NCBI GenBank assembly: GCA_021822495.1
Contig: JAKAQO010000008.1
Coordinates: 43,207 to 107,206 of the forward strand
Source of the DNA: a bacterium
Lineage (GTDB): Bacteria > Elusimicrobiota > Elusimicrobia > UBA1565 > UBA9628
DNA length: 64,000 nt
Direction: 5' to 3'
The notes beneath the pieces are model-generated. The model saw only the letters and a program-made list of their open reading frames with translations, was not told the DNA's origin and ran no database searches. Positions 28,099 through 55,612 of this stretch are shown here, piece by piece. The position numbers and the translations under genes are program-made. The first letter of the stretch is position 1. The number at the start of each line of letters is the position of its first letter.

Positions 28099-28110
28099 GA
28101 GGATATCGTC

Positions 28111-29511: not shown

Positions 29512-29516
29512 GATAC

Positions 29517-31329: not shown

Positions 31330-31330
31330 A

Positions 31331-31828: not shown

Positions 31829-32769
31829 AAACGCGCGGAGGTTGTATCGCCGTCGTCGGTCCAACAGGTTCCGGGAAGACGAAACTTGCCGTTTCGCTGG
31901 CTCGCGAGTTTAACGGGGAAGTAGTGTCGGCCGATTCGCGTCAAATTTACAAGTCGCTTGACGCCGGCACGGCTAAGCCACTTCTTGACGAAAAAGGCCG
32001 CATCGAGGAAATTCCCTACCATCTGGTGGATTTTTTAGATCCCAAAAAACCCTTTGACGCGGGAAGTTTCGCCGCCATGGCAAAACCCATTCTTGCGAAA
32101 ATAAAAAATGAAAATCGCCTTCCCATTATCGCTGGAGGGACAGGGCTCTATGTTAAGGCTCTTTCGCAAGGATTATCGCCTCTTCCTAAGGCCGACGCGC
32201 GCATTCGCGCCGAACTTCTTCAAATTTCAAAAGAGAAAGGTCGTGCATTTTTGCACCAAGAGCTTGAGAAAATTGATCCTCTCGCGGCGCGCCGTATTCC
32301 CGCCAATAATATCCAAAGAGTCATTCGCGCGATCGAGGTCCATCGAATCAGCGGACGCCCTCTGTCGGATTTTTGGAAGGAAGAAAACGAAAACACGGAA
32401 GAATTCATCACCCTCCGCATTGAATGGCCAGTTGAAATTTTAAAGCAAAAACTCAAAGAGAGATGCCGGCGCATGTGGCCGCAAATTCTTAAAGAAACCG
32501 CCCATCTCATTCCAAGATTTTACTCTGGAGAAGAGCCGGGATTTCAAAGTCTCGGTTACCCGCAAGCCGTTCGCTGTCTTCAAGGAAAAATGTCATCTGA
32601 AGCGGGGCTACTTGAATTCATCAAGGAAACCCTGACCTACGCTAAAAGACAGCGCACCTGGTTTAGGCATCAGATTAAGGGCCCGGTGTTTGAAATCGCC
32701 GGACAAGAATCCGAACTCATGTTTTCTCAAGCCGCCAAAATTCTTCGCCAAGAGGGTATCGCCCGATGA
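31801..32769 (+). CDS. miaA: tRNA dimethylallyltransferase
   Basis: It transfers the dimethylallyl group to A37 of tRNAs reading UNN codons. P-loop VVGPTGSGKTKLA is near residue 18; DSRQIYKSLDAGTAKP near 41 and GGTGLYVKAL near 107 are hallmark motifs. It starts with TTG at 31801, inside the PilZ gene; no better start exists before the P-loop. Length of 322 is normal. Stop overlaps hflX (ATGA). Confidence 0.93.
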   Translation: MERIHAQILKTRGGCIAVVGPTGSGKTKLAVSLAREFNGEVVSADSRQIYKSLDAGTAKPLLDEKGRIEEIPYHLVDFLDPKKPFDAGSFAAMAKPILAKIKNENRLPIIAGGTGLYVKALSQGLSPLPKADARIRAELLQISKEKGRAFLHQELEKIDPLAARRIPANNIQRVIRAIEVHRISGRPLSDFWKEENENTEEFITLRIEWPVEILKQKLKERCRRMWPQILKETAHLIPRFYSGEEPGFQSLGYPQAVRCLQGKMSSEAGLLEFIKETLTYAKRQRTWFRHQIKGPVFEIAGQESELMFSQAAKILRQEGIAR

Positions 32770-33926
32770 ACCACGAGCCGCAAAAAGGATTTACTCGTTT
32801 CTTTGAGAATAAATCATTTGAGCGAATCATCTTGGTCGGCGTCGGCCTTAAACGGGAATTTGACGCCATGGAATCAAGCCTCTCCGAACTCGAGCGTTTA
32901 ACGGAAACCGCGGGCGGGACCGTCGCGGAAAAATTTTATCAATTGGTCGAGCGTTACCACCCAGCGACCTTGCTTGGGCGCGGCAAAATCCTGGAGATTG
33001 CCTCCGCCTGCCAAAGGCTCAAATCCTCGACCGTGATTTTCGATCACGATTTAACCGCCGCCCAACAAAAAAACATCGAATCACTTTGTCGCGCCAAAGT
33101 GCTCGACCGCTCGCGCCTGATTTTGGATATCTTCGCCAAAAGAGCGCAAACCAGCGAGGGAAAAATTCAAGTAGAACTGGCGCAGCTCTCGTATCTTTTG
33201 CCGCGCTTGACCGGATCCTGGAGAGGATTTTCCCAACAAGTGGGGGGAATTGGAACCCGCGGCCCTGGAGAGAGAAAATTGGAATATGAGAAACGCCATA
33301 TTCAGCTTCGCATCCGGCATTTGAAAAGGGATATTGAAAGAGTCAAATCAAGCCGCCTAGTTCGTCGAAAAAAGCGTTTGGAAGGAAATGAAAAGCAAAT
33401 CGCCATCATCGGATACACCAACGCCGGAAAGTCAACGCTCCTTAACGCCTTAAGCAAAACCACGAAAACAGTTTACGCCGACGATAAGCTCTTCGCGACT
33501 TTAGACCCGCATTCCCGAAAAATCCGCTTGCCGGGGGAAACCTTCGCCGTTTTAACCGATACCGTCGGCTTTATTCAACGCCTCCCCACCGCCTTGATAG
33601 CGGCCTTTCATTCGACTCTTGAGGAAATTCCCCAGGCGGATTGTCTCTTGATTGTCTCGGACGCCAATTCAAAAGATATTGAAACTCAAGACCAATCCGT
33701 CATTCAAACTCTTGAACAGCTGAAAGCCGAAAAAATCCCCCAAGTTAAAATCCTTAATAAAGCGGACACGCTGGATTTCCAAAAACGCGCGGCATTAAAT
33801 GCAAGATATCCAGACCGTTTGCTGGTCTCGGCGAAAACGGGAGAAGGATTCGATTTATTGCTAAAACAAATTACGGAAACGCTCCAAGCTCATCCTTTCC
33901 TAAGTTCTCAGGATTTGGTTAAATAG
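32766..33926 (+). CDS. hflX: GTPase HflX
   Basis: This ribosome-associated GTPase splits stalled or stress-inactivated 70S ribosomes. The N-terminal HflX domain contains PATLLGRGKILEI and the conserved loop GGIGTRGPGERKLE (about 160). The G domain has GYTNAGKSTLLNAL (G1), DTVGFIQRLP (G3) and NKAD (G4). Length of 386 is usual. Adjacency to miaA is widespread in bacteria. Confidence 0.94.
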   Translation: MNHEPQKGFTRFFENKSFERIILVGVGLKREFDAMESSLSELERLTETAGGTVAEKFYQLVERYHPATLLGRGKILEIASACQRLKSSTVIFDHDLTAAQQKNIESLCRAKVLDRSRLILDIFAKRAQTSEGKIQVELAQLSYLLPRLTGSWRGFSQQVGGIGTRGPGERKLEYEKRHIQLRIRHLKRDIERVKSSRLVRRKKRLEGNEKQIAIIGYTNAGKSTLLNALSKTTKTVYADDKLFATLDPHSRKIRLPGETFAVLTDTVGFIQRLPTALIAAFHSTLEEIPQADCLLIVSDANSKDIETQDQSVIQTLEQLKAEKIPQVKILNKADTLDFQKRAALNARYPDRLLVSAKTGEGFDLLLKQITETLQAHPFLSSQDLVK

Positions 33927-33930
33927 ATTC

Positions 33931-34488
33931 ATGGCCAAAGCCAAAGAACCGAAAGATTTGGAAGTTCGCATCTATTCTCTGGCGACCATGGTCAATGAAG
34001 CCATTATTTTCTTGGAAGAACTCAGCGGAAACCGACTTCTCCCCATCTGGATTGGCATCGCTGAAAGCCAAGCCATCGCCATTCGTTTCTCCGGAATCGT
34101 CCTGCCCAGGCCCCTCACACACGATCTGCTCGTTTCAGCAATTAAAACTCTGGGGTATTCCGTCGATAAAGCCGTGATCTCCGATATAAAAGAAAATACA
34201 TTTTACGCGAGAGTTCATATCCATAAAGGAAATTCCTCAATTACATTGGATGCTCGTCCCTCGGACGCAATTGCGGTGGCCGTTCGCGTGGGATGCCCTA
34301 TTTACGTCGATAGCGGCGTTTTTGATCGTTGCCAAACCCTCGCGAAACCCATCACGGAAGAGGAAGTTTCTAAATTTAAAGACGAACTAAAAAATCTAAA
34401 ACCGGAAGACATTTTTAAGGACCTTGAAAAGAAGAAAGATGACGGCGGAGAGAACCCTCCGCAGTCGTCTGAGGAGTCGCGGTCATGA
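33931..34488 (+). CDS. Bifunctional nuclease family protein (DUF151)
   Basis: This 185-residue protein matches the BFN/DUF151 family: LLPIWIGIAESQAIAIRFSG (about residue 35), RPLTHDLL (about 60), and DARPSDAIAVAVRVGCPIYVD (about 110). Family members are reported to have RNase/DNase activity or to assist transcription elongation; physiological role here is unknown. The C-terminus is acidic and lysine-rich. It starts 5 bp after hflX and its stop overlaps the HU/IHF start. Confidence 0.88.
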   Translation: MAKAKEPKDLEVRIYSLATMVNEAIIFLEELSGNRLLPIWIGIAESQAIAIRFSGIVLPRPLTHDLLVSAIKTLGYSVDKAVISDIKENTFYARVHIHKGNSSITLDARPSDAIAVAVRVGCPIYVDSGVFDRCQTLAKPITEEEVSKFKDELKNLKPEDIFKDLEKKKDDGGENPPQSSEESRS

Positions 34489-34748
34489 ATAGATTGGACG
34501 TCATCAAAGCCGTTGCAAAAACTCTCAGCGCGAAAAGCGAAGCGGTTGCGGCCGTGGAAACCGCTTTTCAGGCGATAGGCGAGGCTTTACGAAAAGATGA
34601 AAAAGTCGTCATCTCGAACTTCGGAACTTTCCGCGTTAAATACAGGAAAGCCCGCTCGGGACGGAACCCAAAAACCGGGGCGTCGGTCTCGGTTCCCGAA
34701 CGCAGAAGCGTCCGCTTTAAGGCTTCGCGCAATCTACTGAACCCTTAG
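34485..34748 (+). CDS. HU/IHF-family DNA-binding protein
   Basis: This 87-residue histone-like protein has the classic layout: two N-terminal helices, then FGTFRVKYRKARSGRNPKTGASVSVPERRSVRFKAS, of which the arm motif GRNPKTG inserts into the DNA minor groove. It bends and compacts DNA as a dimer. IHF-alpha versus HU cannot be separated. It is followed 4 bp later by a MerR-type gene, an arrangement common for ihfA in several phyla. Confidence 0.93.
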   Translation: MNRLDVIKAVAKTLSAKSEAVAAVETAFQAIGEALRKDEKVVISNFGTFRVKYRKARSGRNPKTGASVSVPERRSVRFKASRNLLNP

Positions 34749-34752
34749 CGGA

Positions 34753-35133
34753 ATGTCGGATTTGCTAGGGGCTTTGCCCGATAAAAAATTTTTTACCATG
34801 GGCGAGGTTTGCCGTTTCTGCCAAATTAAATCCTATACGCTGAGATATTGGGAAAAACGCGTCGGCTTCCCTCGCCCCTCGCGAAGGCCGAGCGGCCACC
34901 GCCGTTATGAGCGCAAGGATCTCATTTCTCTTCTTCGACTCAAAGACCTCATCATCGATCAGAAAGTGACCTTGGTTGGAGCGCGAAAAACTTTTTTAAA
35001 GGAATCAAAAAACGGAAAAAAGACCCAGCCCCTCGGCTCTAATATTTTCGCGACGCCTGACCATTCATTTTTTAAAACCTTGGAGGAAATTCGTCAAGAA
35101 TTGCGCGCCACGATCAAGGAACTTTCATCCTGA
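34753..35133 (+). CDS. MerR-family transcriptional regulator
   Basis: This 126-residue protein starts with a MerR winged helix (FTMGEVCRFCQIKSYTLRYWEKR, then RRPSGHRRYERKDL). The short helical remainder has no metal-binding cysteines typical of metal sensors. The IKSYTLRYWE variant resembles the regulator often paired with ihfA. Target is unknown. It closes the miaB-to-merR run and is followed by the tRNA-Pro pair. Confidence 0.9.
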   Translation: MSDLLGALPDKKFFTMGEVCRFCQIKSYTLRYWEKRVGFPRPSRRPSGHRRYERKDLISLLRLKDLIIDQKVTLVGARKTFLKESKNGKKTQPLGSNIFATPDHSFFKTLEEIRQELRATIKELSS

Positions 35134-35165
35134 TTCAAATTTTTATAGAGTATGGAGCTTTGGTT

Positions 35166-35185
35166 TTGTGGTGACTGGACCACAA
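35166..35185. other. Inverted repeat upstream of tRNA genes
   Basis: TTGTGGT and ACCACAA form a perfect 7-bp inverted repeat around a 6-nt centre, between the MerR gene and tRNA-Pro(GGG). No T tract follows, so it is not a good terminator. It could be an operator, perhaps for the adjacent MerR regulator, or chance. Confidence 0.35.
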
Positions 35186-35224
35186 TGGTCGTCTGCGGGC
35201 AAAGTATGGGGTTCCGCGATTTTG

Positions 35225-35296
35225 CGGGGACTGGCTCAATGGTAGAGCGCTCCCTTGGGGTGGGAGAGACTCCGGGTTCGATTCCCGGGTCCCCGA
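35225..35296 (+). tRNA. tRNA-Pro (anticodon GGG)
   Basis: The full cloverleaf is visible: acceptor CGGGGAC/GTCCCCG, D stem GCTC/GAGC, anticodon stem CTCCC/GGGAG with loop TTGGGGT (anticodon GGG), T arm CCGGG-TTCGATT-CCCGG. The discriminator is A. The 3' CCA is not encoded (TGT follows). Confidence 0.96.
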
Positions 35297-35319
35297 TGTT
35301 TTATCGGCATCTATTTTCA

Positions 35320-35392
35320 CGGGGCATAGCTCAATTGGCAGAGCGCTTGGTTCGGGACCAAGAGGTTCTGAGTTCAAATCTCAGTGCCCCGA
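35320..35392 (+). tRNA. tRNA-Pro (anticodon CGG)
   Basis: Acceptor CGGGGCA/TGCCCCG, D stem GCTC/GAGC, anticodon stem CTTGG/CCAAG with loop TTCGGGA (anticodon CGG), T arm CTGAG-TTCAAAT-CTCAG, discriminator A. No encoded CCA. It lies 23 bp after tRNA-Pro(GGG) and ends 7 bp before the acylphosphatase start, so the mRNA may be processed from a shared transcript. Confidence 0.96.
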
Positions 35393-35399
35393 GCTTTAG

Positions 35400-35672
35400 A
35401 TGAAAAGGGTCCATTTTACCGCCAGTGGAGAGGTCCAAGGAGTGGGATTACGCTGGTCGGTTCAAGAGATGGCTCAAAGTCTCGGGTTATCAGGGTGGAT
35501 TCGCAATAGAGAAGATGGGATGGTTGAGGGAGAAGTTCAAGGCACGGACCCAAAAATTGGAGAATTTATGAAAAATTTGAAAGCCGGTCCGGGACGCGCA
35601 AGAATCGAGACCCTCATTCAAGAAGCGCGACCCATTCAAAAACTAGAATCGGGGTTTGATATTCGCCGTTAA
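35400..35672 (+). CDS. acyP: Acylphosphatase
   Basis: It hydrolyses carboxyl-phosphate bonds such as acetyl phosphate. At 90 residues it has the family signatures: GEVQGVGLRWSVQEMA (P-loop-like with the catalytic Arg of GxRW/FR at about 18) and GLSGWIRNREDGMVEGEVQG with the catalytic Asn (about 36). It directly follows the tRNA pair, with the ATG only 7 bp from the tRNA 3' end. Confidence 0.93.
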   Translation: MKRVHFTASGEVQGVGLRWSVQEMAQSLGLSGWIRNREDGMVEGEVQGTDPKIGEFMKNLKAGPGRARIETLIQEARPIQKLESGFDIRR

Positions 35673-35698
35673 GGCCCCGCGACACGATAGGAGAACGC

Positions 35699-36766
35699 AT
35701 GACTGAAGCCAGCATTGATTCCCTCAACCAATATTTTAAGGGCATTCAAAGACTTCCCGCCGTTGATCGCGAGGAGATGCACAAGCTTTGGAAACAAGCC
35801 AAGCGAGGCGATCATGAGGCCAAAAAGCGCATTTTGGAACTCAACCTTCGCCTGGTCGTTCCCATCGCGAAAAAATATCATCGGCAGGGCATAGATTTTA
35901 TGGATTTGGTCGAAGAAGGAAACATCGGCCTCATCCGCTCCATCGAGAAATTCGACCCTAGAAAAGGATTCCGTTTTTCAACCTATTCCTCTTACTGGAT
36001 CGAACAATCCATTCGCCGGGCGGTGGAGGAACAATCAAAAACCATCCGCGTCCCTCCCCATGCGTGGGAAGCCTTAAGGAAATGGCTCAAGGAATGGGAG
36101 AAAATGCGCGCCAAACTCGGAAGAGAACCGAGCCTGGTTGAAATGGCGAAAAAAATGCGCTGGAATGCCCGGCAGGTGCGGGCGGTTTTAGACACCGCCG
36201 AAGCCACGCGCGGAATCGGGTCTCTGGACGCGCCCATTGACAGCGAAGAAGAAAACTTAACGGTTGAAAATACGCTTTCTGATTCCGAAAGTAATTCCCC
36301 CGACAACCTTCTTTCCGTTCTCAAGTTGCATGACGAACTCAACCAAGCCATTCGGGAAATTGGAAACCGCGAGCGCATGATTATCGAACTCAGATACGGC
36401 CTGACCGGACAAAACCCGATGACCCTTGAAGAAGTGGGAAAGCGCCTGAGGCTCTCCCGCGAGAGAATACGTCAGATTGAAGAAAGAGCTCTTCTCCGGC
36501 TTAGGCGGGTTTCAAACCGCATGGGTTTGATTGAAGTTGAGGAAGCTAAATATAAAGCTCCGAACCTTCAGCCGGGATGGCATTCCCATTCGGAACACAC
36601 CGACATTCTAGGCCGCCCCGTTCTTCGCAAAAAGAAAAGTTCCTCCAACGAACTTTCCTTGATGCGGCGAAGAATTCCGCGGCTCACACTGACTCTCTTA
36701 AAAAATAAAAAGGCGACGCAAAAACGCTCGCCTAAACTCTCGCATTCCAAGAAAAAGAGGAAATAA
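35699..36766 (+). CDS. RNA polymerase sigma-70 family factor (RpoD/RpoS-like)
   Basis: This 355-residue group 1/2 sigma factor has region 1.2 (SIDSLNQYFKGIQRLPAV), region 2 (LNLRLVVPIAKKYH, DLVEEGNIGLIRSIEKFDPRKG, FSTYSSYWIEQSIRRAV), region 3 and region 4 (EEVGKRLRLSRERIRQIEERAL). No long 1.1 or non-conserved region is present. The -10-recognition helix has SYWIEQSI instead of the usual TWWIRQAI, which suggests an alternative (RpoS-type) rather than the housekeeping factor. A basic C-terminal tail of about 75 residues is unusual. ATAGGAGAACGC precedes the ATG. apt overlaps the stop by one base. Confidence 0.88.
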   Translation: MTEASIDSLNQYFKGIQRLPAVDREEMHKLWKQAKRGDHEAKKRILELNLRLVVPIAKKYHRQGIDFMDLVEEGNIGLIRSIEKFDPRKGFRFSTYSSYWIEQSIRRAVEEQSKTIRVPPHAWEALRKWLKEWEKMRAKLGREPSLVEMAKKMRWNARQVRAVLDTAEATRGIGSLDAPIDSEEENLTVENTLSDSESNSPDNLLSVLKLHDELNQAIREIGNRERMIIELRYGLTGQNPMTLEEVGKRLRLSRERIRQIEERALLRLRRVSNRMGLIEVEEAKYKAPNLQPGWHSHSEHTDILGRPVLRKKKSSSNELSLMRRRIPRLTLTLLKNKKATQKRSPKLSHSKKKRK

Positions 36767-37284
36767 TGAGCGCTCACTTAAAAGAATCCATCATTGACGT
36801 TCCCGATTTTCCAAAACCGGGCATTGTTTTTAAAGACATCACGCCTCTTTTGGCCGACCCGAAAGCTTTTAAAGCCGCCATTGATCAAATGGCCGAGCCC
36901 TTTAAAAACGCCCGCATCGGCATCGTCGCTGGAATCGAGTCGCGCGGTTTTCTCCTTGCGACCCCGATTGCCTACTGCCTGGGCGCGGGCGTCATTCTGG
37001 TTCGCAAGAAAGGAAAGTTACCCCGCAAGACGGTAGCTGTCAATTACGATTTGGAATACGGACAAGACATTCTTGAGGCTCACGCGGACGCCTTTTCCTC
37101 GGGAACCAACATATTGTTGGTTGACGATGTCCTTGCCACCGGAGGCACCGCCCAAGCCGCGTGTAGGCTTTTAGAAAAAATCGGGGGGAAAGTAGTGGGA
37201 CTGGCGTTTTTACTGGAACTTAAAGCGCTCAAAGGCCGAGACAAATTAACCGGCCAACGCATTCATTCTCTGCTGGAGTATTGA
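36766..37284 (+). CDS. apt: Adenine phosphoribosyltransferase
   Basis: It salvages adenine to AMP using PRPP. At 172 residues it has PDFPKPGIVFKDITPLL (about residue 11), GIESRGFLLATPIAY (about 57) and the PRPP-binding motif ILLVDDVLATGGTAQA (about 115). The ATG overlaps the TAA of the sigma gene. tRNA-Arg follows 12 bp after the stop. Confidence 0.95.
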   Translation: MSAHLKESIIDVPDFPKPGIVFKDITPLLADPKAFKAAIDQMAEPFKNARIGIVAGIESRGFLLATPIAYCLGAGVILVRKKGKLPRKTVAVNYDLEYGQDILEAHADAFSSGTNILLVDDVLATGGTAQAACRLLEKIGGKVVGLAFLLELKALKGRDKLTGQRIHSLLEY

Positions 37285-37296
37285 AGCCTTTTTTGA

Positions 37297-37368
37297 GCCC
37301 CGATAGCTCAATGGATAGAGCTACTCCGTCCTAAGGAGAGGATGGGGGTTCGATTCCCTCTCGGGGCA
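37297..37368 (+). tRNA. tRNA-Arg (anticodon CCT)
   Basis: Acceptor GCCCCGA/TCGGGGC, D stem GCTC/GAGC, anticodon loop GTCCTAA (anticodon CCT), T arm GGGGG-TTCGATT-CCCTC with one G-T pair. The outermost anticodon-stem pair (A-A) is mismatched. Discriminator A; no encoded CCA. Confidence 0.93.
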
Positions 37369-37405
37369 GATTTTTGTTATCTTTTGATAGAGTGGAGAAA
37401 ATTTA

Positions 37406-38152
37406 ATGGGAACACACTGGGCCAGACAACAGGTTAAAAATAACGAATTGGAAGGAAGCCTCGCCAAAACGATTCTTTGGATCAAAGCCAACAAACAAGT
37501 TTCCGGAATGATCGCGGGCGTTATGCTTGTCGCGGCTATTGTGGGATTAACCGTCTATCACAATTTCAAAACTCACCGAAACAAAGCCTGGGAAGAACTA
37601 GGACTCGCAGAAGGGCTCTACGCCGCCGGACACAAAGCTAAATCTTTCGCTCAGGTTAAAAACCTTGAAACTCAATACTCCAACACTCCGGCCGCCGGTT
37701 ACGGACTCTTGTTCGCGGGAGATGTGTCTTTTTCAACCGGCGATTATGCGACGGCTAAATCTTATTACCGGCAGCTTGAAGCGCTCAACTCGCAAACGCT
37801 GACCCCTTTTGCCCTCAATGATTTGGCTTTGACTTACGAGGCCTCCAGGGCCTGCGATAAAGCCGAGATGGAAGCCCAGAAATTTCTCGATCTTTATCCC
37901 GATCATTTCTTGGCGCCTCAAGTTCACTCCGTTTTAGCCCGTTGCTATGAGAGCCAGGGAAAAATAGAGGATGCCAAGGTGACTTATCAAAAAATTGCTT
38001 TGGAATATCCCAATACTTATTTTGCCGCGTGGGCCCAAGACAAAATTTCGCCCAAGGGGGGGAAAACGGGCTCTAAAAAAACGGCGGAGACCTCGGTGAA
38101 AGTTGCCCCGCCCTCCCCTCAAAAATCAAAAAAACTCCCGCGAAAAACTTAA
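37406..38152 (+). CDS. Membrane-anchored TPR protein (YfgM/TPR_21-like)
   Basis: This 248-residue protein has a cytosolic N-terminus (about 35 residues), one transmembrane helix (MIAGVMLVAAIVGLTVYH) and tetratricopeptide repeats (GYGLLFAGDVSFSTGDYATAKSYYRQL, VHSVLARCYESQGKIEDAKVTYQKIA). The tail is Lys/Pro-rich. The layout resembles YfgM-type ancillary proteins of the secretion pathway, but similarity is only architectural. GTGGAG lies upstream of the ATG. Its TAA shares a base with the next ATG. Confidence 0.75.
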   Translation: MGTHWARQQVKNNELEGSLAKTILWIKANKQVSGMIAGVMLVAAIVGLTVYHNFKTHRNKAWEELGLAEGLYAAGHKAKSFAQVKNLETQYSNTPAAGYGLLFAGDVSFSTGDYATAKSYYRQLEALNSQTLTPFALNDLALTYEASRACDKAEMEAQKFLDLYPDHFLAPQVHSVLARCYESQGKIEDAKVTYQKIALEYPNTYFAAWAQDKISPKGGKTGSKKTAETSVKVAPPSPQKSKKLPRKT

Positions 38153-39681: not shown

Positions 39682-40251
39682 ATGTCTATATTTATGACAG
39701 ATACTCCTGACTTTTCAGCCAAAAAACTTCGACTGCGATTCCCCAATGGATTTGAATTTGAAGCTCTGGGCAGCGAAGATTTCATCAAAGAACAACTCAA
39801 GGCCTTTTTAAATCAAGAAAGCGGACCCGAGCGCTTAAGCAAACCACAAAAAGAATCCCCGGAAGATGCGCGCGCGGAAAATCAAAATAGCCCGATAATC
39901 GTTGAGTGGGGGAAAATAGCGGAAATTTCAGGAGAAAACCTTCTGCTCAGAAGCAAAATTGAACCCTTTGGACAGGAAACAGAGGCCTGCCTCATCCTCA
40001 TCGCCGCAAGCAAAAACCTCACCAACAACCCAAAACCCAGCGCCCTACAGCTGGCCCGCTGGCTTCGCAAATCAGGATACCCTATTCCAAGAATTGACCG
40101 CGTCCTTCAAAATGCCGTCCAAAACGGAGAGATACTCATCTCCGGATCGCGTCGCGGACGCAAATACGAATTAAGCCCGGCTGGCAAAGTCAAAGCCCTC
40201 CTTATCGCGGAAAAACTCACCCGACGCATCACGCCGACACCTAAAACCTAA
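39682..40251 (+). CDS. Hypothetical protein with a winged-helix-like C-terminus
   Basis: I do not recognise this 189-residue protein. The N-terminus has LRLRFPNGFEFEALGSEDFIKEQL, which looks like a short beta-strand unit followed by a helix. The middle is acidic and probably flexible. The C-terminal third (ALQLARWLRKSGYPIPRIDRVLQNAVQNGEILISGSRRGRKYELS) reads as a winged helix with a basic wing. No good ribosome-binding site precedes the ATG, and ATG 39694 is an alternative. It sits alone between tandem DnaA boxes and a dif-like site. Confidence 0.6.
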   Translation: MSIFMTDTPDFSAKKLRLRFPNGFEFEALGSEDFIKEQLKAFLNQESGPERLSKPQKESPEDARAENQNSPIIVEWGKIAEISGENLLLRSKIEPFGQETEACLILIAASKNLTNNPKPSALQLARWLRKSGYPIPRIDRVLQNAVQNGEILISGSRRGRKYELSPAGKVKALLIAEKLTRRITPTPKT

Positions 40252-40294: not shown

Positions 40295-40322
40295 ACTATT
40301 GATAATAAATATTATGTTACAT
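40295..40322 (+). other. dif: dif-like XerC/XerD recombination site
   Basis: The 28-mer has the canonical 11-6-11 layout. The right arm TTATGTTACAT differs from the E. coli XerD arm TTATGTTAAAT at one position. The centre is TAAATA (E. coli TGTATA). The left arm ACTATTGATAA keeps the inner ATAA that mirrors TTAT of the right arm. Total identity to E. coli dif is 19/28 by eye. It lies exactly at the meeting point of two convergent gene blocks, as expected for a terminus. AT-rich context makes chance similarity possible. Confidence 0.5.
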
Positions 40323-40656: not shown

Positions 40657-40920
40657 CTAAGACAATGAAGGGAAATCGAAAGGCCAAATAATGCCCAAAG
40701 CGATGAGGGCATAGCCCCCTAAAATCAAAACAGGAGAAACCCAGGAGGCCCAATTGCGCCCCAGAGGATCGGAAGCGGACAAAACCCAGAAGCCTAAAAC
40801 AGCCGTAAAAACGCCCCCCAAGATGAGCCTTGTCCCCCATTTAGAAAAAATCAGGGCCCGGGAAGGTTTTAAAAGGGCGGTCTTGTTGGGTTTTTTATCC
40901 CTTTGACGGTTTCTGGACAT
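40657..40920 (-). CDS. Small hypothetical membrane protein
   Basis: This 87-residue protein has a basic N-terminus (MSRNRQRDKKPNK) and two transmembrane helices (LILGGVFTAVLGFWVLSA and WVSPVLILGGYALIALGII). I cannot name a family. It overlaps the 3' end of the TPR gene by 26 bp, consistent with translational coupling at the end of the long - strand operon. Coding status rests on the clean two-helix pattern and positional coupling. Confidence 0.65.
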   Translation of the reverse strand: MSRNRQRDKKPNKTALLKPSRALIFSKWGTRLILGGVFTAVLGFWVLSASDPLGRNWASWVSPVLILGGYALIALGIIWPFDFPSLS

Positions 40921-41854
40921 AATGCCGTTTCTGTTTTTTTCGCCTTTTTTGAGCCAAAAGAAAGCGGCGAGCCTTTCTTAACCCCATTTTAGCCTGGGAG
41001 TCTTTTGGATTGAGAGCCAAAACTTTTTTCCACAGTTTTTCTGACTCCTTATAATTGCCAAGCTTCTGCCAGGTTTCAGCGACAAAAAAATATATTTTTT
41101 GAGGCAGAATCCCGATCTCTTCATTCTTAGATGGAACAGCCTTCAGAAAATGATTGAGGGCTCCTTTATAGTCTTTTTTATCCCAATCAATTCTTCCAAG
41201 GTAAAACTCAGCCCTTTGAACGCCCGGGAAAGATAAGGAAGCGCCGGCTAAACCTCGAAATATCTCCGCGGCGCCTTCGTCTTCATGGTTTTTCCAAAGA
41301 CAAAGACCTAAATTTTCTTTAATGACCGGGTCTCGGGGAGAGAGAGAACTTAAACGCTCATATTCTGCTTGCGCCTCGTAATACCGACCCGCTTGAAAGA
41401 GAAGTTTGGCTTCCCGTTGACGGAGGTCTTGATCGTCGGGAAAATTGCGCAGATAGCGTTGATATTCCTTAAGGGCGAAAGGATAAAAACCGAGGTTTTG
41501 ATACATAATCCCCAAGTAATAGAAAATATCCGGGTCCAAGGAACCGAGAGAACGCGCTTCTTCAAGGGCATTGACGCCTTGCGGATAAAAATCAGGGCCT
41601 TTCTTGAAATAACAAGTTCCCAAGAGCGCCAAAGCCTTTAAATCCTGGGGATTGGTTTTAAGGTCTCTTTGGGCCGCGGCAATTTCGGAATCAAGATTTT
41701 GGACAGTTTTCTTCTTTCTTTGCCTGGGCAAAAGAAACGCCAAGACTAATAGACCAACCAGGAATGTAGAAATAATAAGGACGCGCGTTTTTAGTTTAGG
41801 CAGAGAACTTGGCTTTTCTCCCGTCTTAGATAAGGGAGAATCTCCAGATTTCAT
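40895..41854 (-). CDS. Membrane-anchored TPR protein
   Basis: This 319-residue protein has one transmembrane helix near residue 30 (VLIISTFLVGLLVLAFLLP), then several tetratricopeptide repeats (LKALALLGTCYFKKG, DIFYYLGIMYQNLGFYPFALKEYQRYL, RQREAKLLFQAGRYYEAQAEYERL, FVAETWQKLGNYKESEKLWKKVL). It ends in a strongly basic tail (RRFLLAQKRRKKQKRH). Likely an envelope scaffold. Its start overlaps the stop of the S1 gene (ATGA). Confidence 0.8.
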   Translation of the reverse strand: MKSGDSPLSKTGEKPSSLPKLKTRVLIISTFLVGLLVLAFLLPRQRKKKTVQNLDSEIAAAQRDLKTNPQDLKALALLGTCYFKKGPDFYPQGVNALEEARSLGSLDPDIFYYLGIMYQNLGFYPFALKEYQRYLRNFPDDQDLRQREAKLLFQAGRYYEAQAEYERLSSLSPRDPVIKENLGLCLWKNHEDEGAAEIFRGLAGASLSFPGVQRAEFYLGRIDWDKKDYKGALNHFLKAVPSKNEEIGILPQKIYFFVAETWQKLGNYKESEKLWKKVLALNPKDSQAKMGLRKARRFLLAQKRRKKQKRHYVQKPSKG

Positions 41855-43149
41855 TCGTCAGAGGACAAAATATCTCCCAGGGTCAAGGGAGAAGGAGCTT
41901 TGAGATATTGCGCGACGCGAGCGCGCTCTTGTTTTTCGCTATGGCGCTTAATTGAAACAAACAAGCGAAGAGTCTTCGCGTCCACGCCCGAAACCAACGC
42001 CCCTACTTCCTCTCCCACCTTCGGCGCTTCCTCATCTATTTGAGAAGCCGGGCAAAAAGCGAGAACAGGGCTTCCCTTTTTATTTTTTTCGGAAGGGGCG
42101 GCCTCCTTGCGGTTTTTTCCCTGAACGCTCGTCACTGTAAAGACTACTCCCGCCTGATCAACGGAAACCACGGGCCCGGAAACGACCGTTCCAGATGGAT
42201 ATTTTTTACGCAACAAATCAGAAGGATTCGGAAGAAGCTGTTTAATTCCAAAATAGACCGCCCCTTCGGAGTTTTGCCCCTCGGCTTCGGGCAAAACCTT
42301 TGAAATGACCTTCACTCTTAATTTATCTCCGCGCTTATAAAGCGGCGTACTATTTTCCCCCCAAGCGATATCCGCCGGACGAATAAGCCCCTTGAAACCT
42401 CCGATATCAATGGTCAAGCCTTCAACAGAAGTTTTGGAAATGCGTCCGAAACGCACTTGTCCCACTTCAATTTCAGAGAAAATTTTTACGCGCCTTTGGG
42501 ATGCTTCTTCTTCCAAAACCGCTTTTCGTGAAATAACGACTCTTTTTTCCGCCTCGTTTAGATCAATAATGTAACACTCAATCGTTTTATTTAAAAGAAT
42601 TTCTACTTTAAAGACCGGGCGAAAATCGGCCAGGGAGGCGGGCAAAAAAGCGGTAATGCCGGAAACGTCCACTAAAAAGCCCCCCTTGATTCCGGAGTGA
42701 ACCTTTCCCAAAACGCGCGCGCGTTCGCGAAAAGATTTTGAAATTCCCTCCCAAGATAATTCCGCCATCGCTTTTCTATGCGATAGAAGAGTCGTTCCAT
42801 CGGAACGCTTACCCACATAGAGAACGGCGATTTTCTCGCCGGATTTCGGCATCTTGGGCGCGAGAGATTCTTCTTTGCGCTTCTTAGGCGAGTCTTGGTT
42901 TTTGGAAGTCTTTTTAGGAACGGAAAACGTAAAATCCGAAACGGGGATAAAGCCTTCCTTTTTTTCTCCGATATCCACCCAAACGCCCTCGGCGGTCGAG
43001 GAAATCACATTGGCCCAAACAATCTGCCGGGAGGAAACTTGCTTGGAAAGCCCTTCTTCCTGGGCGAAGAGAGCCTCCATTTCTTTCCGGGCTTCCCAAT
43101 CTTCCTTAGCCTCGGCCCCGGCGAAATCATCCTGCATTTTGTCTTTCAT
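41851..43149 (-). CDS. S1-domain RNA-binding protein (ribosomal protein S1-like)
   Basis: This 432-residue protein has about four S1/OB-fold domains: VWANVISSTAEGVWVDIGEKKEGFIPVSDF (about residue 44), the repeat around GKVHSGIKGGFLVDVSGITAFLPASL (about 147), VRFGRISKTSVEGLTIDIGGFKGLIRPADI (about 232) and a diverged C-terminal one. Its position directly downstream of cmk reproduces the widespread cmk-rpsA pair, supporting a ribosomal S1 role in mRNA binding. It has fewer domains than the six of E. coli S1, and lysine-rich insertions. AAGGGG precedes the ATG. Confidence 0.82.
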   Translation of the reverse strand: MKDKMQDDFAGAEAKEDWEARKEMEALFAQEEGLSKQVSSRQIVWANVISSTAEGVWVDIGEKKEGFIPVSDFTFSVPKKTSKNQDSPKKRKEESLAPKMPKSGEKIAVLYVGKRSDGTTLLSHRKAMAELSWEGISKSFRERARVLGKVHSGIKGGFLVDVSGITAFLPASLADFRPVFKVEILLNKTIECYIIDLNEAEKRVVISRKAVLEEEASQRRVKIFSEIEVGQVRFGRISKTSVEGLTIDIGGFKGLIRPADIAWGENSTPLYKRGDKLRVKVISKVLPEAEGQNSEGAVYFGIKQLLPNPSDLLRKKYPSGTVVSGPVVSVDQAGVVFTVTSVQGKNRKEAAPSEKNKKGSPVLAFCPASQIDEEAPKVGEEVGALVSGVDAKTLRLFVSIKRHSEKQERARVAQYLKAPSPLTLGDILSSDE

Positions 43150-43234
43150 TAAACCTAACCCCTTGAGAGATATTAACTAAAATTGCGCTATCGAAGAAGA
43201 AACACATCTTATTTATTGTATTAAAGTTTAGGGC

Positions 43235-43930
43235 TCATTTTGAACCCCTATCCCGACGGCGGCGAACCATCTTGATAATTTTCTGGGCGACCGCCCGGCG
43301 GCTCATGTGAGTGGAATCAATGAGAACGGCGTCTTTGGCGAAACTTAAGGGATTGATTTTTCTCTTTAAATCCCCCAGATCTCTTTTCAAAATCGCCTCC
43401 TTGATTTTTCTCCAATTAGCCTCTTGCCCCGCCGCCTTGAGCTGGTGATAACGGCGTTTCGCCCGCTCCTCGACCGAAGCGTCCAAATAAATCTTAAACT
43501 CGGCGTCGGGAAAAACGTGGGTCGTGATATCTCGCCCTTCCATGACGACTCCGCCATTTTTACCCAAGGAGCGCTGCAACTTACAGAAAAATTTCCGCAC
43601 TCCCGGATAAGACGCGACTTGACTGGAAGAGGCGCCAACCCGCTCATCCCGGATATGAGAAGACACGGGTTCGCCATCAACAAAGGTTTTGAGAGTGACC
43701 TCATCGGAAGACGGATGAAAACCCCAGTCAATCTCATGGGCCAAAGCGACAATTCTTTTCTCATCCCCAATATCTAATTTTTTTTCGAGCGCCTTCCAGG
43801 TCAAGGCCCGATACATCTCTCCGGTATTGACGAAATGGTATCCCAAGGATTTCGCCACCCATTGGCCGATGGTGGATTTTCCCACTCCCGCTGGGCCGTC
43901 CATGGCGATAACAAAGCCTTTTTTTCTCAT
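43235..43930 (-). CDS. cmk: Cytidylate kinase
   Basis: It phosphorylates CMP and dCMP. At 231 residues it has P-loop AMDGPAGVGKSTIGQWVA at the N-terminus, FVNTGEMYRALTW (about 34), VVMEGRDITTHVFPDAEFKIYLDAS (about 129) and ERAKRRYHQLK in the lid. An 85-bp gap separates it from the S1 gene, and its start overlaps the end of hisC by 4 bp. Confidence 0.94.
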   Translation of the reverse strand: MRKKGFVIAMDGPAGVGKSTIGQWVAKSLGYHFVNTGEMYRALTWKALEKKLDIGDEKRIVALAHEIDWGFHPSSDEVTLKTFVDGEPVSSHIRDERVGASSSQVASYPGVRKFFCKLQRSLGKNGGVVMEGRDITTHVFPDAEFKIYLDASVEERAKRRYHQLKAAGQEANWRKIKEAILKRDLGDLKRKINPLSFAKDAVLIDSTHMSRRAVAQKIIKMVRRRRDRGSK

Positions 43931-45024
43931 TTTAAAACGCCTTCCAATACCTTGATTAATTTTAGATGGTCCGGTCCGCGCCCGATGCTGATGCGAACGT
44001 AAAAGGGAAGCCCATATTCATCCAGCGGGCGAATAATGATTCCGCGCTCAAGCAGTTTTTGGAAAAGCTCTTTTCCCAAAATGGGCGATTTCGCGAAAAT
44101 AAAATTGCAAGCCGAAGGAACAATTTCAAAACCGAACTTGGGAAGGGCCTTTTCTAAAAAAACTTTTTCCTTGCGGTTGAGAGAAACGCCCTTGGAGACA
44201 AAGCGGGCGTCTTGAATAGCCGCGATGCAGGCCCTCTGGGCGGGCAAGCTGACATTAAAAGGCATCCGAATGCGGTCCAGCCATCCCACAATTTCAGGAT
44301 GAGTCACGACATAACCAACTCTAAGACCCGCTAAACCGTAAGCTTTAGAAAAAGTTCTGAGGACCGCCACGTTCGGAAGCCTGGGCGACCATAAGGGAAC
44401 GCTGTTTGGATAATCTTTTTCCAGGCGCGCATAATTATAATAAGCTTCGTCTAAAATTAAAATGGCCTTGGGCGGAAGCCGGACGATAAATTTCTCCAGT
44501 TCCTTTTGCGAATTATAGGTCCCCGTGGGATTATTCGGATTCGGAATAAACACAAGCCGGGTCCTCTCGCTTAAAGCCCGCGCCATCGCCTCAAGATCGA
44601 GCTTCCAATTCATCATTGGAACCTCAATAATCCGAGCCCCCATGAGCATGGATTGCTGGCGAAAGCGAATAAAAGCATATTGGGAGGTCAACGCTTCTTG
44701 ATTTTCGTCTAAGAAAGCTTCGCAAAAGAGACGAATAATTTCATCCGAGCCATTGCCGATTAAAATGGATTCTTCCGGCGCTTTATGAAATTTGGCCAAG
44801 GCCTTCCGAAGTTCGGGGCTGGCGCCTTCCGGGTAAAGAAAGCAATCCTTAGAGGATTTCCGGTAAACGGAAATAGCCTTGGGAGAAGCCCCCAAGGGAT
44901 TTTCATTGGAGGCCAGTTTAATCACTTTTTTAAGCCCGAATTCCCGGCGCACCGATTCAATGGATTTTCCGGGAATATAGGGAGAAATTTTCCGCAACAG
45001 CGGCCGCGGCTCTATTTGCGACAT
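43927..45024 (-). CDS. hisC: Histidinol-phosphate aminotransferase
   Basis: This PLP-dependent class II aminotransferase converts imidazole-acetol phosphate to histidinol phosphate. KLASNENPLGASPKA near residue 37, NPNNPTGTY near 163, DEAYYNYA near 197 and the Schiff-base lysine in TFSKAYGLAGLRVGY near 225 are all present. I trimmed the ORF to the ATG at 45024, which has AAGGAAGG upstream and gives 365 residues. Other his genes are absent, so a broader aminotransferase role is possible. It overlaps pgeF by 13 bp. Confidence 0.88.
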   Translation of the reverse strand: MSQIEPRPLLRKISPYIPGKSIESVRREFGLKKVIKLASNENPLGASPKAISVYRKSSKDCFLYPEGASPELRKALAKFHKAPEESILIGNGSDEIIRLFCEAFLDENQEALTSQYAFIRFRQQSMLMGARIIEVPMMNWKLDLEAMARALSERTRLVFIPNPNNPTGTYNSQKELEKFIVRLPPKAILILDEAYYNYARLEKDYPNSVPLWSPRLPNVAVLRTFSKAYGLAGLRVGYVVTHPEIVGWLDRIRMPFNVSLPAQRACIAAIQDARFVSKGVSLNRKEKVFLEKALPKFGFEIVPSACNFIFAKSPILGKELFQKLLERGIIIRPLDEYGLPFYVRISIGRGPDHLKLIKVLEGVLK

Positions 45025-45734
45025 GACAAACCTTCCTTTAGCGTCATAAAAGCGGCCATGCGCTCGGTTTCCCCGTTTCGGTGAGAAAAATAACCCGGGG
45101 CACAAACGGTACATTCCAAACTTAAATAAATCGAATCTTCCGAAAGCCCTGAACGCAAGAGTTGGTTCTTGGCCTCGATATTTAAGTCCAATCTCAGGCC
45201 TTTTTTATCATCGATGAAATCTTCCTTGGGGAAAAATTCCTTTATTTCAGGCCCCACTTCGCAGCAGCAAACTCCGATATGAGGGCCGGCCGAGGCCAAT
45301 AAATCTTTCGCATTCAAGTTAAACAGTCTCTGCATTTCGGTTGAGGCGATATAAGCAAAACTCTTCGCCATTCCCCGCCACCCGGCGTGAAAAACGCCAA
45401 AGACAGGCTCTTTTTTAGACCAAATAAAAAGCGGAACACAATCGGCGACTAAAATAAGAGGAAGCATTTCCCCGTCGTTTGCAAACCAACCGTCGCCTTC
45501 CAGGACTTTTTCAGCTCCCTTCTCTGCATGAAAAATCCTGGTCCCATGAACCTGGCTTAAAGCCCGCGGCATTTTTCCCTTTAATTTTTGGCTCTCGAAA
45601 AATTTTTTGCGAACTTGCGCGTCTTTCATGTTTCCCAAGGAGCGTTTAGTTAGGCCGCCCAAAAAACCGTAATCAGCCATCCGCAAGTCTTGCCAGAGAT
45701 ATTGAGATGAGACTTCAGGCTCTTTGATCGGCAT
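45012..45734 (-). CDS. pgeF: Polyphenol oxidase/purine nucleoside phosphorylase family protein (YfiH/PgeF)
   Basis: This 240-residue member of the multicopper-like YfiH/PgeF family has VHGTRI, GDGWFAND, ADCVPLFI, FHAGWRGMAKS and GPHIGVCCCEVG. These hold the conserved His and Cys residues that bind zinc or copper. E. coli PgeF edits mis-incorporated L-Ser in peptidoglycan precursors, and human FAMIN is a purine enzyme. yfiH near ftsZ is widespread, and ftsZ is three genes upstream here, supporting a wall-related role. Confidence 0.88.
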   Translation of the reverse strand: MPIKEPEVSSQYLWQDLRMADYGFLGGLTKRSLGNMKDAQVRKKFFESQKLKGKMPRALSQVHGTRIFHAEKGAEKVLEGDGWFANDGEMLPLILVADCVPLFIWSKKEPVFGVFHAGWRGMAKSFAYIASTEMQRLFNLNAKDLLASAGPHIGVCCCEVGPEIKEFFPKEDFIDDKKGLRLDLNIEAKNQLLRSGLSEDSIYLSLECTVCAPGYFSHRNGETERMAAFMTLKEGLSCRK

Positions 45735-46434
45735 ATATCTTCGCTTGAGATTTAGGCGCGGGTTTCACCGAACGGAGGGGCCGCACCCATTTCGTGAAAC
45801 TGGAGGGTTTAAGAGAATATTCATGGACTAGTCGGACGACTTCCGAAATCGGCAAGAATTTTTCCCAATTAAGCCTTAAGATGCGCACGCCCGCCTGCTC
45901 CATTTCCGAGACGAACTGATCATAATTAGATTGAAGATATTTTAAATATTCCAAGGTAATCGTTTTTTCCATCGAGCGGCCCCTCATTTTTATGCGCTCA
46001 AGGGCCGTTTCGGGACTGCATTGAATGTAAATTAAAATTTGCGGAAAAACAAGCTCCCGAAGCACCATGTTATCGAAGAGATCCAAATAGGTATTGTAAT
46101 CCAAATCAGAAATAATCTTGTCGGGATGATTATTGAGCATGCGGGCGAAAATGGTGTCTTCCCAAATCGTGCGGTCTTGAACCACGCCTCGAATTTTCCC
46201 AAGGCTGATGCGGGTCACGAATTCCCGGTGCTGCCTAAAACGATGATTGAGAAGCCAGACCTGCATCATCGTTCCGTAGCCTTTCATGTCGTGATAAAAA
46301 CGATCCAGATAAGGATTCCCATCCACTTCTTCCAGGACCGGCTCAAAATTAAGAGCCTTGGCCAACTCAACAGTCAAGGTAGATTTTCCGACACCTATCG
46401 TTCCCGCGATTCCTATATATCCCTCGCCAAACAT
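45715..46434 (-). CDS. Deoxynucleoside kinase (dAK/dGK family)
   Basis: This 239-residue salvage kinase phosphorylates deoxynucleosides. P-loop GIAGTIGVGKSTLTVELA is near residue 7, the substrate segment LEEVDGNPYLDRFYHDM near 33, VVQDRTIWEDTIFA near 84 (DRS/DRT motif), and the lid RIKMRGRSME near 150. The EVDGNPYLDRFY variant matches bacterial dAdo/dGuo kinases. It lies 3 bp after the pilT stop and overlaps pgeF by 20 bp. Confidence 0.88.
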   Translation of the reverse strand: MFGEGYIGIAGTIGVGKSTLTVELAKALNFEPVLEEVDGNPYLDRFYHDMKGYGTMMQVWLLNHRFRQHREFVTRISLGKIRGVVQDRTIWEDTIFARMLNNHPDKIISDLDYNTYLDLFDNMVLRELVFPQILIYIQCSPETALERIKMRGRSMEKTITLEYLKYLQSNYDQFVSEMEQAGVRILRLNWEKFLPISEVVRLVHEYSLKPSSFTKWVRPLRSVKPAPKSQAKIYADQRA

Positions 46435-46437
46435 TTT

Positions 46438-47517
46438 TCACCCCATCCGGATTTCTTGTTCGATTCCCTTCATCGCCAGCCTTAAATCGTCCGGGCTGGT
46501 CGCGGCATCCATGATATCGTTTTCGGAGGCAAGGCCGTCTTTAAAAAGACGGAAAAGAGATTGATTGAAAGTCTGCATTCCGTAAAATTGTCCTTTCCCG
46601 ATGGCTTGAACGATTCCGTTTGAATCGTTGTCTTCAATGAGTTTTTTAATGTGGGCGGTCACCGCCATAATCTCAATAGCGGGAACTCTTCCGCCTTTTA
46701 AGCAGGGCAAAAGCCTTTGGCTGACGACGGCCTTAAGCGTTTCGGCCAATTCCTTGCGCATTAAATTCTGCTGATGCGGAGGATAAAGATCGATAATTCG
46801 GGTAATGGTCTGGGTGGTGTCGACGGTGTGCATCGTGGCCAAAACCAAATGTCCGGTTTGAGCGGCTGTCAGGGCCGCAGCCGTCGTTTCAATATCCCGC
46901 ATTTCCCCGAGCAAAATCACGTCCGGGTCTTGTCTTAAGGCCATTCGAAGGCCCTCCGCGAACGATTCCGTATCTTGGCCGATTTCTCTTTGGGTCACAA
47001 TCGCCTTTTTATCTTTATGCAAAAATTCAATGGGATCTTCAATCGTCACGATATGGCAAGGCCGCGTCTCGTTAATGGCATCCACCATCGCCGCCAATGT
47101 CGAGGATTTCCCGGAGCCGGTGGCCCCGGTCAGCAAAACCAAGCCGCGCCTTAAATCAGCAATTTTGCGAATCGTCGTGGCTGGAAGCTTGAGTTCCTGA
47201 AAAGAGGGAATTTGAACCGGAATATAGCGAATGGCCAAAGATAAGCGGCCTCTTTGATGAAAAGCGTTGACGCGAAAGCGCGCCACGTTTTCAATCTCGA
47301 ATGAAAAGTCGCACTCGCCTTTTTCATCGAATATTTTTTTCGCGTGAGGGGTGATGAGTTTCTTTAAAATGTCCTCGACAACGGCGGGAGTCAACATTTC
47401 CTGGGAAAAGGGCGTCAGTAGCCCGTCAATGCGAATGTGAGGAACCCCGCCGACCCTTAAATGAATATCGCTTCCTTTTTTATCGATCGTCGCCTGCAAA
47501 ACATTTTGGATATCCAT
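46438..47517 (-). CDS. Type IV pilus retraction ATPase, PilT/PilU family
   Basis: This 359-residue hexameric secretion ATPase has DIHLRVGGVPHIRIDG at the N-terminal PAS-like domain, Walker A LTGATGSGKSSTLAAM (about 126), the Asp box TIEDPIEFLHKDKKAIVTQREIG in part, Walker B VILLGEMRD (about 195) and the His box LVLATMHTVDTTQT. LGEMRD instead of AGELRD, and the MQTFNQSLF tail, resemble PilU more than PilT. It drives pilus retraction for twitching. No other pilus genes are in the window. Confidence 0.92.
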   Translation of the reverse strand: MDIQNVLQATIDKKGSDIHLRVGGVPHIRIDGLLTPFSQEMLTPAVVEDILKKLITPHAKKIFDEKGECDFSFEIENVARFRVNAFHQRGRLSLAIRYIPVQIPSFQELKLPATTIRKIADLRRGLVLLTGATGSGKSSTLAAMVDAINETRPCHIVTIEDPIEFLHKDKKAIVTQREIGQDTESFAEGLRMALRQDPDVILLGEMRDIETTAAALTAAQTGHLVLATMHTVDTTQTITRIIDLYPPHQQNLMRKELAETLKAVVSQRLLPCLKGGRVPAIEIMAVTAHIKKLIEDNDSNGIVQAIGKGQFYGMQTFNQSLFRLFKDGLASENDIMDAATSPDDLRLAMKGIEQEIRMG

Positions 47518-47527
47518 GAAAATTCCT

Positions 47528-48661
47528 CTATTTCAATTTGCGGGTCTTAAGCCTCAAAAACGCGGGCTTGGATAAATCATCCAAGGAGTCCTGCGATTTC
47601 GAGATTTCAAAAGCGCCTTTTTTCTTGCCTGAAAGGGCCGACTCATTTGAGTCGTCTTGAAAATGATTGGCTTTAAAAAAATGACGCGGATTTCTTTTGA
47701 CGGGAAAACCGGTCGCAATGACCGTAATGCGAATGGAATCTCCCAAGGAATCGTCATAGGCTTTTCCCATTTTAATTTTAGCGTCCGGGCTGGCGGCGCC
47801 GGTGATTAAATCCATCGCCTCTTCCATTTCCGCGAGCTTAAGCCCGTCTTTTCGACCGGTAATGTTGACGATAAGCCCCTTCGCCCCGTCCATGACGACA
47901 TTTTCAAGGAGAGGCGAATGAACCGCCGCCTTGGCCGCGGCCGCCGCGCGTCCCGCCCCAGAGGCTTCTCCCATTCCAATCAAGGCCTCGCCTGCGTCTT
48001 TCATGATCGCCCGCATATCGTTTAGGTCCATATTGATGTTTCCGGGCATGGTGATGACATCAGAAATGGATTGAATCGCTTTTCTCAAGACATCATCCGC
48101 CAGACGAAAGGCGGACTCCGCCGTCGTTTCCGAATCGCTGATATCCAAAAGACGCTGATTGGGAATCACCAGTAGAGTGTCCACATTTTTGCGCATCTCC
48201 TGAATTCCCTGTTCCGCGAGATTGGCGCGGTTGAGTTTCTCAAAAGCGAAGGGCCGGGTTACGACGCCGACGGTCAAAGCCCCCAATTCGCGGGCAATTT
48301 GAGAAACCAAGGGCGCGCCCCCCGTTCCGGTTCCGCCGCCCATCCCCGCGGTAATAAAAACTAAATCCGAGCCTTGAAGAATTTCGCGAATCTGTTCGGC
48401 GCTTTCTTCCATCGCCAAGCGCCCGCGGGCGGAATCGCCGCCGACCCCAAGCCCCTTGGTTAATTTTTCTCCAATTTGAACGCGAATATGAGCGAGACTT
48501 CTTCTTAAATCCTGGGCGTCGGAATTGGCCGCGATGAGTTCGACAGATTTAATTCCAGCTTCCGCCATTCGGTTAATCGCGTTTCCTCCCGCTCCGCCAA
48601 CGCCTATGGCCTTAATAACGGCGCGGGTTTCATGGACATCCTCTAAAACCTGAATTTTCAT
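47528..48661 (-). CDS. ftsZ: Cell division protein FtsZ
   Basis: This tubulin-like GTPase forms the Z-ring. IKAIGVGGAGGNAINRM is at about residue 15, the tubulin signature GGGTGTGGAPLVS near 105, and the T7 loop NMDLNDMRAIMKDAG near 203. The C-terminal peptide SKPAFLRLK is intact and should bind FtsA. Length of 377 is usual. It follows ftsA without a gap, within a murB-ftsQ-ftsA-ftsZ division cluster. Confidence 0.97.
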   Translation of the reverse strand: MKIQVLEDVHETRAVIKAIGVGGAGGNAINRMAEAGIKSVELIAANSDAQDLRRSLAHIRVQIGEKLTKGLGVGGDSARGRLAMEESAEQIREILQGSDLVFITAGMGGGTGTGGAPLVSQIARELGALTVGVVTRPFAFEKLNRANLAEQGIQEMRKNVDTLLVIPNQRLLDISDSETTAESAFRLADDVLRKAIQSISDVITMPGNINMDLNDMRAIMKDAGEALIGMGEASGAGRAAAAAKAAVHSPLLENVVMDGAKGLIVNITGRKDGLKLAEMEEAMDLITGAASPDAKIKMGKAYDDSLGDSIRITVIATGFPVKRNPRHFFKANHFQDDSNESALSGKKKGAFEISKSQDSLDDLSKPAFLRLKTRKLK

Positions 48662-49903: not shown

Positions 49904-49904
49904 C

Positions 49905-51625: not shown

Positions 51626-51685
51626 CAAATACAAGCCTAACAAATCACGTCTTGAAATTCCATTAGAGGTCGGCCGCCGGACCTT

Positions 51686-52603: not shown

Positions 52604-52615
52604 TGATTAATTCAA
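52603..52615. promoter_or_regulatory. LysR-type operator (TTGATTAATTCAA)
   Basis: TTGA-TTAAT-TCAA is a dyad that fits the LysR T-N11-A rule. Its centre (52609) lies about 65 bp before the transcription start predicted from the downstream promoter, the standard LysR recognition position. It overlaps the first base of the divergent LysR gene, which suits autorepression. Confidence 0.55.
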
Positions 52616-52627
52616 ATACTATGTATT
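52615..52627. promoter_or_regulatory. Second dyad (AATAC-TAT-GTATT), possible activation site
   Basis: A perfect 5-bp inverted repeat abuts the LysR recognition dyad and lies 11 bp before the -35 box. This is where LysR activators place their secondary, inducer-sensitive site. Confidence 0.4.
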
Positions 52628-52638
52628 AGATTATCAAA

Positions 52639-52667: not shown

Positions 52668-52677
52668 GTTTGAGGGA

Positions 52678-55570: not shown

Positions 55571-55612
55571 GTCCCTTCTTCTTAAATCAAAACTTCTCCG
55601 CCGAAAAATCCA

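What the first reader, a model, noticed from the sequence alone, without database searches (positions are those of the whole stretch)
40295..40322. dif-like XerCD site at the convergence of two gene blocks
The 28-mer has the 11-6-11 layout. Its right arm TTATGTTACAT differs from the E. coli XerD arm at one base, and the inner ATAA/TTAT symmetry is kept. It sits exactly where 40 kb of + genes meet 12 kb of - genes. dif sites mark the replication terminus in most bacteria with circular chromosomes. AT-rich surroundings raise the chance of a false match.
Basis: partly seen in the sequence, partly recalled or inferred. Interest (0 to 1): 0.75.

Follow-up and report, generated by a model that had tools for sequence, protein, structure and literature searches.

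The report
Conserved dif site at replication terminus
This 28-base sequence is very probably the bacterium's dif site, the spot where accidentally joined daughter chromosomes are cut apart; runs of six or more G on both chromosome arms point at it, and an uncharacterised probable DNA-binding protein gene sits beside it across the bacterial class.

Summary
ACTATTGATAATAAATATTATGTTACAT is at 40295-40322 between convergent genes, once in the 2.2 Mb draft genome (an Elusimicrobiota MAG). It is identical in three congeners while its flanks drift (mean column conservation 0.91 in the site, 0.46 in flanks, 16 genomes). It recurs in single copy at the same place across the family, and related sites occur across the phylum, including a complete 1.64 Mb genome where it lies at 56% of the circle from dnaA. 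The genome encodes XerC, XerD and FtsK. I accept it as dif.

Another polarity does. Runs of six or more G point at the site from both sides and flip within 2.3 kb of it in five contigs, whatever the gene strand, and within 1.8 kb in the complete genome, where bulk skew flips about 60-105 kb away. The FtsK gamma domain lacks the E. coli KOPS-reading residues R1300 and E1303. I infer that G-runs stand in for KOPS.

The gene ending 43 bp from the site (189 aa, probable winged helix, no family match) is dif-linked in all 72 genomes compared.

The parts
40295..40322 (+). dif site, 28 bp
   Evidence: Single copy, conserved in relatives, at the polarity switch.
40295..40305 (+). Left arm ACTATTGATAA, inferred XerC half site; GATAA invariant, outer bases variable
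   Evidence: Column conservation over 16 genomes.
40306..40311 (+). Central region TAAATA (6 bp)
   Evidence: Position between the arms; partly variable.
40312..40322 (+). Right arm TTATGTTACAT, inferred XerD half site; TTATGTT invariant
   Evidence: one base from the E. coli arm.
39682..40251 (+). dif-linked gene, 189 aa, probable C-terminal winged helix, function unknown
   Evidence: Linked to the site in 72 of 72 compared genomes; no Pfam or NCBIfam match; fold.
7974..38061 (+). Left arm G-runs of six or more on the + strand: starts at 7974, 10382, 11280, 12544, 14372, 15283, 18502, 18740, 18935, 33242, 37183, 38056. Exceptions (C-runs): 31526, 39590
   Evidence: left 12 G: 2 C, right 0 G: 6 C, Fisher p = 0.0007.
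40814..62404 (-). Right arm G-runs on the - strand (C-runs on +): starts at 40814, 42357, 42680, 48318, 50875, 62399
40895..41854 (-). TPR-like gene, first gene of the right arm
   Evidence: ORF; conserved on the same side in most relatives. Name by inspection.
41851..43149 (-). S1-like gene, syntenic anchor
   Evidence: Linked to the site across the family, with the same relative orientation. Name by inspection.

Best explanation
The site is the chromosomal dif of an Elusimicrobiota bacterium. When recombination joins sister chromosomes into a dimer, FtsK at the septum pumps DNA until the two dif copies meet; XerC binds the variable left arm and XerD the conserved right arm, and strand exchange at the 6-bp centre resolves the dimer. 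In this phylum I infer that FtsK reads its direction from runs of six or more G pointing at dif rather than from the E. coli word GGGNAGGG. Shown here: the site, its conservation and copy number, the Xer and FtsK genes, and the G-run polarity switch at the site. Inferred: binding, recombination, and G-runs being read by FtsK gamma.
For: Single copy; syntenic conservation with drifting flanks; arm-like conservation pattern; XerD above the NCBIfam cut-off and a XerC-like partner; full-length FtsK; site at 56% of the circle from dnaA in complete G115; G-run change point within 2.3 kb of the site in five contigs and within 1.8 kb in G115, independent of gene strand; FtsK gamma lacks the KOPS-reading residues R1300 and E1303.
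Against: Bulk GC skew does not switch at the site in the window or in four relatives. The XerC candidate is below its NCBIfam cut-off (312.8 against 335.15). In G223 the site is 29% of the circle from dnaA rather than 50%. No experiment. The KOPS-replacement part rests on polarity and residue changes only.
Confidence: 0.95

Rival explanations
1. The site is dif, but the G-run polarity is a by-product of replication-strand mutation or selection, such as avoidance of G-runs on one template strand, and not an FtsK signal. The flip would then simply mark where forks usually meet.
For: Much of the bias is depletion of wrong-way runs: 110 seen against about 259 expected (sums mine). Polarity rises with run length, as a structural or slippage effect could.
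Against: The flip is at the site itself and not at the bulk-skew flip: in G115, 12 G-runs to 0 between 840 kb and the site although skew is already negative there. Runs of 3 and 4 show no polarity in the family contigs.
Confidence: 0.45
2. The 28-mer is an operator or other regulatory palindrome (for example Fur-like or PerR-like) and not a recombination site.
For: AT-rich, with the inner palindrome ATAATA-AA-TATTAT.
Against: It lies between gene ends, not in a promoter; one copy per genome in most family members; at the polarity switch; asymmetric arms conserved as in dif.
Confidence: 0.02
3. It is an attachment site left by, or used by, a Xer-dependent integrated element rather than the primary dif.
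For: A few other genomes of the class carry two dif-like sites on one contig (G053, G072).
Against: One copy only here, in synteny conserved across the family, and at the polarity switch.
Confidence: 0.02

Closest known systems
dif/XerCD of E. coli (GGTGCGCATAATGTATATTATGTTAAAT)
   Same: 11-6-11 layout, inner ATAA/TTAT, right arm one base different, separate XerC, XerD and FtsK genes, flanking polar sequences pointing at the site.
   Different: 19 of 28 positions match; left arm ACTATTGATAA instead of GGTGCGCATAA; polar word is a G-run; a conserved unknown gene lies beside it.
Predicted dif of Elusimicrobia in Kono et al. 2011 (PMC3025954)
   Same: Same phylum; predicted in one genome.
   Different: That paper had one genome and gave no polar word or linked gene in the text searched; the sequence itself was not in the text I could read.
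KOPS (GGGNAGGG) and AIMS
   Same: Short polar sequences on both arms that converge on dif (PMC5357621, PMC5993296).
   Different: Here the word is a run of six or more G; GGGNAGGG has no switch at the site in the family.
XerS/dif and XerH/dif, single-recombinase systems
   Same: A gene conserved directly beside dif (XerS linkage: abstract of PMC2731167; XerH from memory).
   Different: The linked gene here is not a tyrosine recombinase but a small probable winged-helix protein, and separate XerC and XerD genes exist.

Membership tests
dif (XerCD chromosome dimer resolution site) | 28 bp, two 11-bp arms around a 6-bp centre, inner ATAA/TTAT | tested here: met
dif (XerCD chromosome dimer resolution site) | Single copy per chromosome | tested here: met
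   One hit within 3 mismatches in the draft genome, 94.7% complete.
dif (XerCD chromosome dimer resolution site) | Cognate XerC and XerD encoded | tested here: met
   XerD above cut-off; the second protein's best match is XerC, below cut-off.
dif (XerCD chromosome dimer resolution site) | Lies in the replication terminus, at the switch of chromosome polarity | tested here: met
   G-run and gene-strand polarity switch at or near the site; 56% from dnaA in G115.
dif (XerCD chromosome dimer resolution site) | Near the bulk GC-skew shift point | tested here: not met
   No switch in the window or four relatives; 60-105 kb away in G115. A usual correlate in Kono et al., not a definition; they report that distance and skew strength do not correlate.
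dif (XerCD chromosome dimer resolution site) | XerCD binding and recombination at the site | not testable with these tools
   Needs bench work.
KOPS | Short sequence oriented toward dif on both arms, switching at dif | tested here: met
   G-runs of six or more.
KOPS | Sequence GGGNAGGG or close | tested here: not met
   No switch at the site in the family; in G115 its peak is at 863 kb, away from dif.
KOPS | Bound by FtsK gamma | not testable with these tools
   Gamma domain present but diverged: 15 bits, cut-off 30.6; R1300 to N/D and E1303 to S.

The most novel reading that the evidence does not exclude
In Elusimicrobia the terminus works as a three-part variant: dif, G-run polar signals read by a re-specified FtsK gamma domain, and a dedicated dif-linked winged-helix protein that acts at or near dif, for instance to organise the terminus or regulate XerCD.
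Probability: 0.25. Interest if true: 0.75.

Novelty: new variant of a known kind. Interest (0 to 1): 0.55.

Why it matters
dif gives a fixed terminus for a phylum known mostly from draft genomes, in a family where GC skew cannot place it. The G-run flip is a sharper marker than skew and separates dif-centred polarity from bulk strand composition. Altered FtsK reading residues together with a changed polar word make KOPS co-evolution directly testable. The dif-linked gene is a concrete lead for an unknown terminus protein. The dif site alone would be ordinary.

Tried and rejected
GC skew as terminus test: no switch at the site in the window or four relatives. GGGNAGGG and GAGAAGGG: no switch at the site in the family. 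Codon-like polar words such as TCTACG were set aside because they follow gene strand; restricting the count to genes facing away plus intergenic DNA left mainly G-runs. A better dif elsewhere: a generic dif pattern at 3 mismatches gives 14 hits against 22 for the reversed control, so those are noise. Endomicrobium-type genomes G289 and G293: no clear site with this pattern. Structure of the linked protein: moderate confidence only, pLDDT 61.

Full report
Observation. The 28-mer ACTATTGATAATAAATATTATGTTACAT is at 40295-40322 as stated. It lies in an AT-rich spacer between the stop of a + ORF at 40251 and the stop of a - ORF at 40895. On the contig, genes left of the site are 51 + and 3 -, right of it 3 + and 15 -, so the convergence is real though not absolute. 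The right arm differs from the E. coli arm at one base.

Source. The window is part of a 2,215,484-bp, 15-contig draft and runs to the end of contig 3. A congener carrying the neighbouring S1-like gene is titled 'Elusimicrobia bacterium', so the phylum is Elusimicrobiota.

Conservation. The site is single copy in its genome within 3 mismatches. Of 38 genomes searched, 14 have exactly one such copy and the reversed-pattern control has none. Three congeners are identical over the 28 bases, while in G003 the surrounding region is only about 70% identical. In 16 genomes the mean majority frequency per column is 0.91 in the site and 0.46 in 40 bp of either flank. GATAA of the left arm and TATTATGTT across the centre and right arm are invariant, and the outer left arm varies. 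That is the pattern expected of a XerC arm and a XerD arm. A looser pattern finds hits in 281 of 341 phylum genomes; in AT-rich genomes some of these are chance, as the control shows.

Machinery. The genome has a XerD above the NCBIfam cut-off, beside a recA, and a second recombinase whose best match is XerC, beside a topA-like gene (recA and topA named by inspection). It has an FtsK with membrane, alpha and motor domains.

Terminus placement. In the complete genome G115 (1,643,562 bp; from memory the size of Elusimicrobium minutum Pei191) the homologous site is at 917,176 and dnaA at 889. In G223, a single-contig member of the window's family, the site is at 2,508,433 and dnaA at 3,598,626 of 3,802,950. 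In sampled stretches, G-runs are 22 to 1 before the site and 0 to 5 from it toward dnaA, with one more G-run 0.4 kb short of dnaA. That fits unequal arms.

GC skew. Skew stays negative through the window and does not switch at the site in G006, G011, G005 or G015. In G115 bulk skew switches between about 810 and 860 kb, roughly 60-105 kb short of the site.

G-run polarity. A word count around the site showed runs of G pointing at it. The cumulative G6-minus-C6 count peaks 0.6 to 2.3 kb from the site in five contigs, including 1.4 kb in a 551 kb contig. Likelihood change points agree, and shuffles do not reach them. Polarity by exact run length is 49% for 3, 51% for 4, 58% for 5, 78% for 6, 90% for 7 and 20 of 20 for 8. 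It is the same in genes facing the site (289:68), genes facing away (82:18) and intergenic DNA (92:24), so transcription does not explain it. Eleven more genomes give 89:15 in stretches of up to 20 kb around the site. The family contigs share synteny and are not independent, but G115 is from another family, and its runs flip between 915,833 and 917,597, around the site. In G115 between 840 kb and the site, where skew is already negative, G-runs are 12 to 0. Much of the bias is depletion of wrong-way runs: 110 seen against about 259 expected under an order-2 Markov model (sums mine). The E. coli control gave the expected GGGNAGGG flip (3:0 and 0:10) in 100 kb around dif.

Reading head. The Pfam FtsK gamma model scores below its cut-off in all 341 phylum genomes and 15 bits in the own FtsK. 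Aligned to E. coli FtsK, R1300 becomes N or D and E1303 becomes S in three Elusimicrobiota proteins, while E1306 is kept. PMC2680272 reports R1300A and E1303A as defective in KOPS recognition. I infer that this clade reads a different word; G-runs are the only candidate found. The alternative, a by-product of replication, stays open at 0.45.

dif-linked gene. The 189-aa ORF at 39682-40251 ends 43 bp from the site. A profile of its family finds it in 147 of 175 class genomes. In 72 genomes where gene and site were located on one contig, the gene is always on the same (XerC-arm) side and in the same orientation; median gap 342 bp, 69 of 72 under 2 kb. I compiled these pairs by hand and picked the dif-like hit by sequence where several were listed. 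In G114 the two lie on different contigs of a draft. The family has no significant Pfam, NCBIfam or PDB sequence match. The model, of moderate confidence, has a C-terminal winged helix resembling MarR-type folds. A role at dif is a hypothesis.

Known context. dif in Elusimicrobia was predicted in one genome by Kono et al. (PMC3025954). KOPS and AIMS are established elsewhere (PMC5357621, PMC5993296). In the open-access library searched I found no report of G-run polarity or of this linked gene in the phylum; subscription literature was not searched.

Verdict. The site is dif, with high confidence. The surrounding polarity and the linked gene make it a variant worth testing.

Noticed in passing
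window 39682-40251: A 189-aa gene with a probable winged helix and no family match is tied to dif across the class (72 of 72 pairs, always the XerC-arm side).
   Followed up: partly
G053:C90:26578 and 27069; G072:C10:39295 and 51008: Two dif-like sites in opposite orientation on one contig; possibly Xer-dependent integrated elements or inversions.
   Followed up: no
many g30 genomes, for example G054:C1:492659: A second recurrent, conserved sequence TTGTTATAATTTATATTATATTAATT, unrelated in position to dif; nature unknown.
   Followed up: no
G003, L055, syntenic position: G003 lacks the TPR-like gene found between dif and the S1-like gene in most relatives.
   Followed up: no
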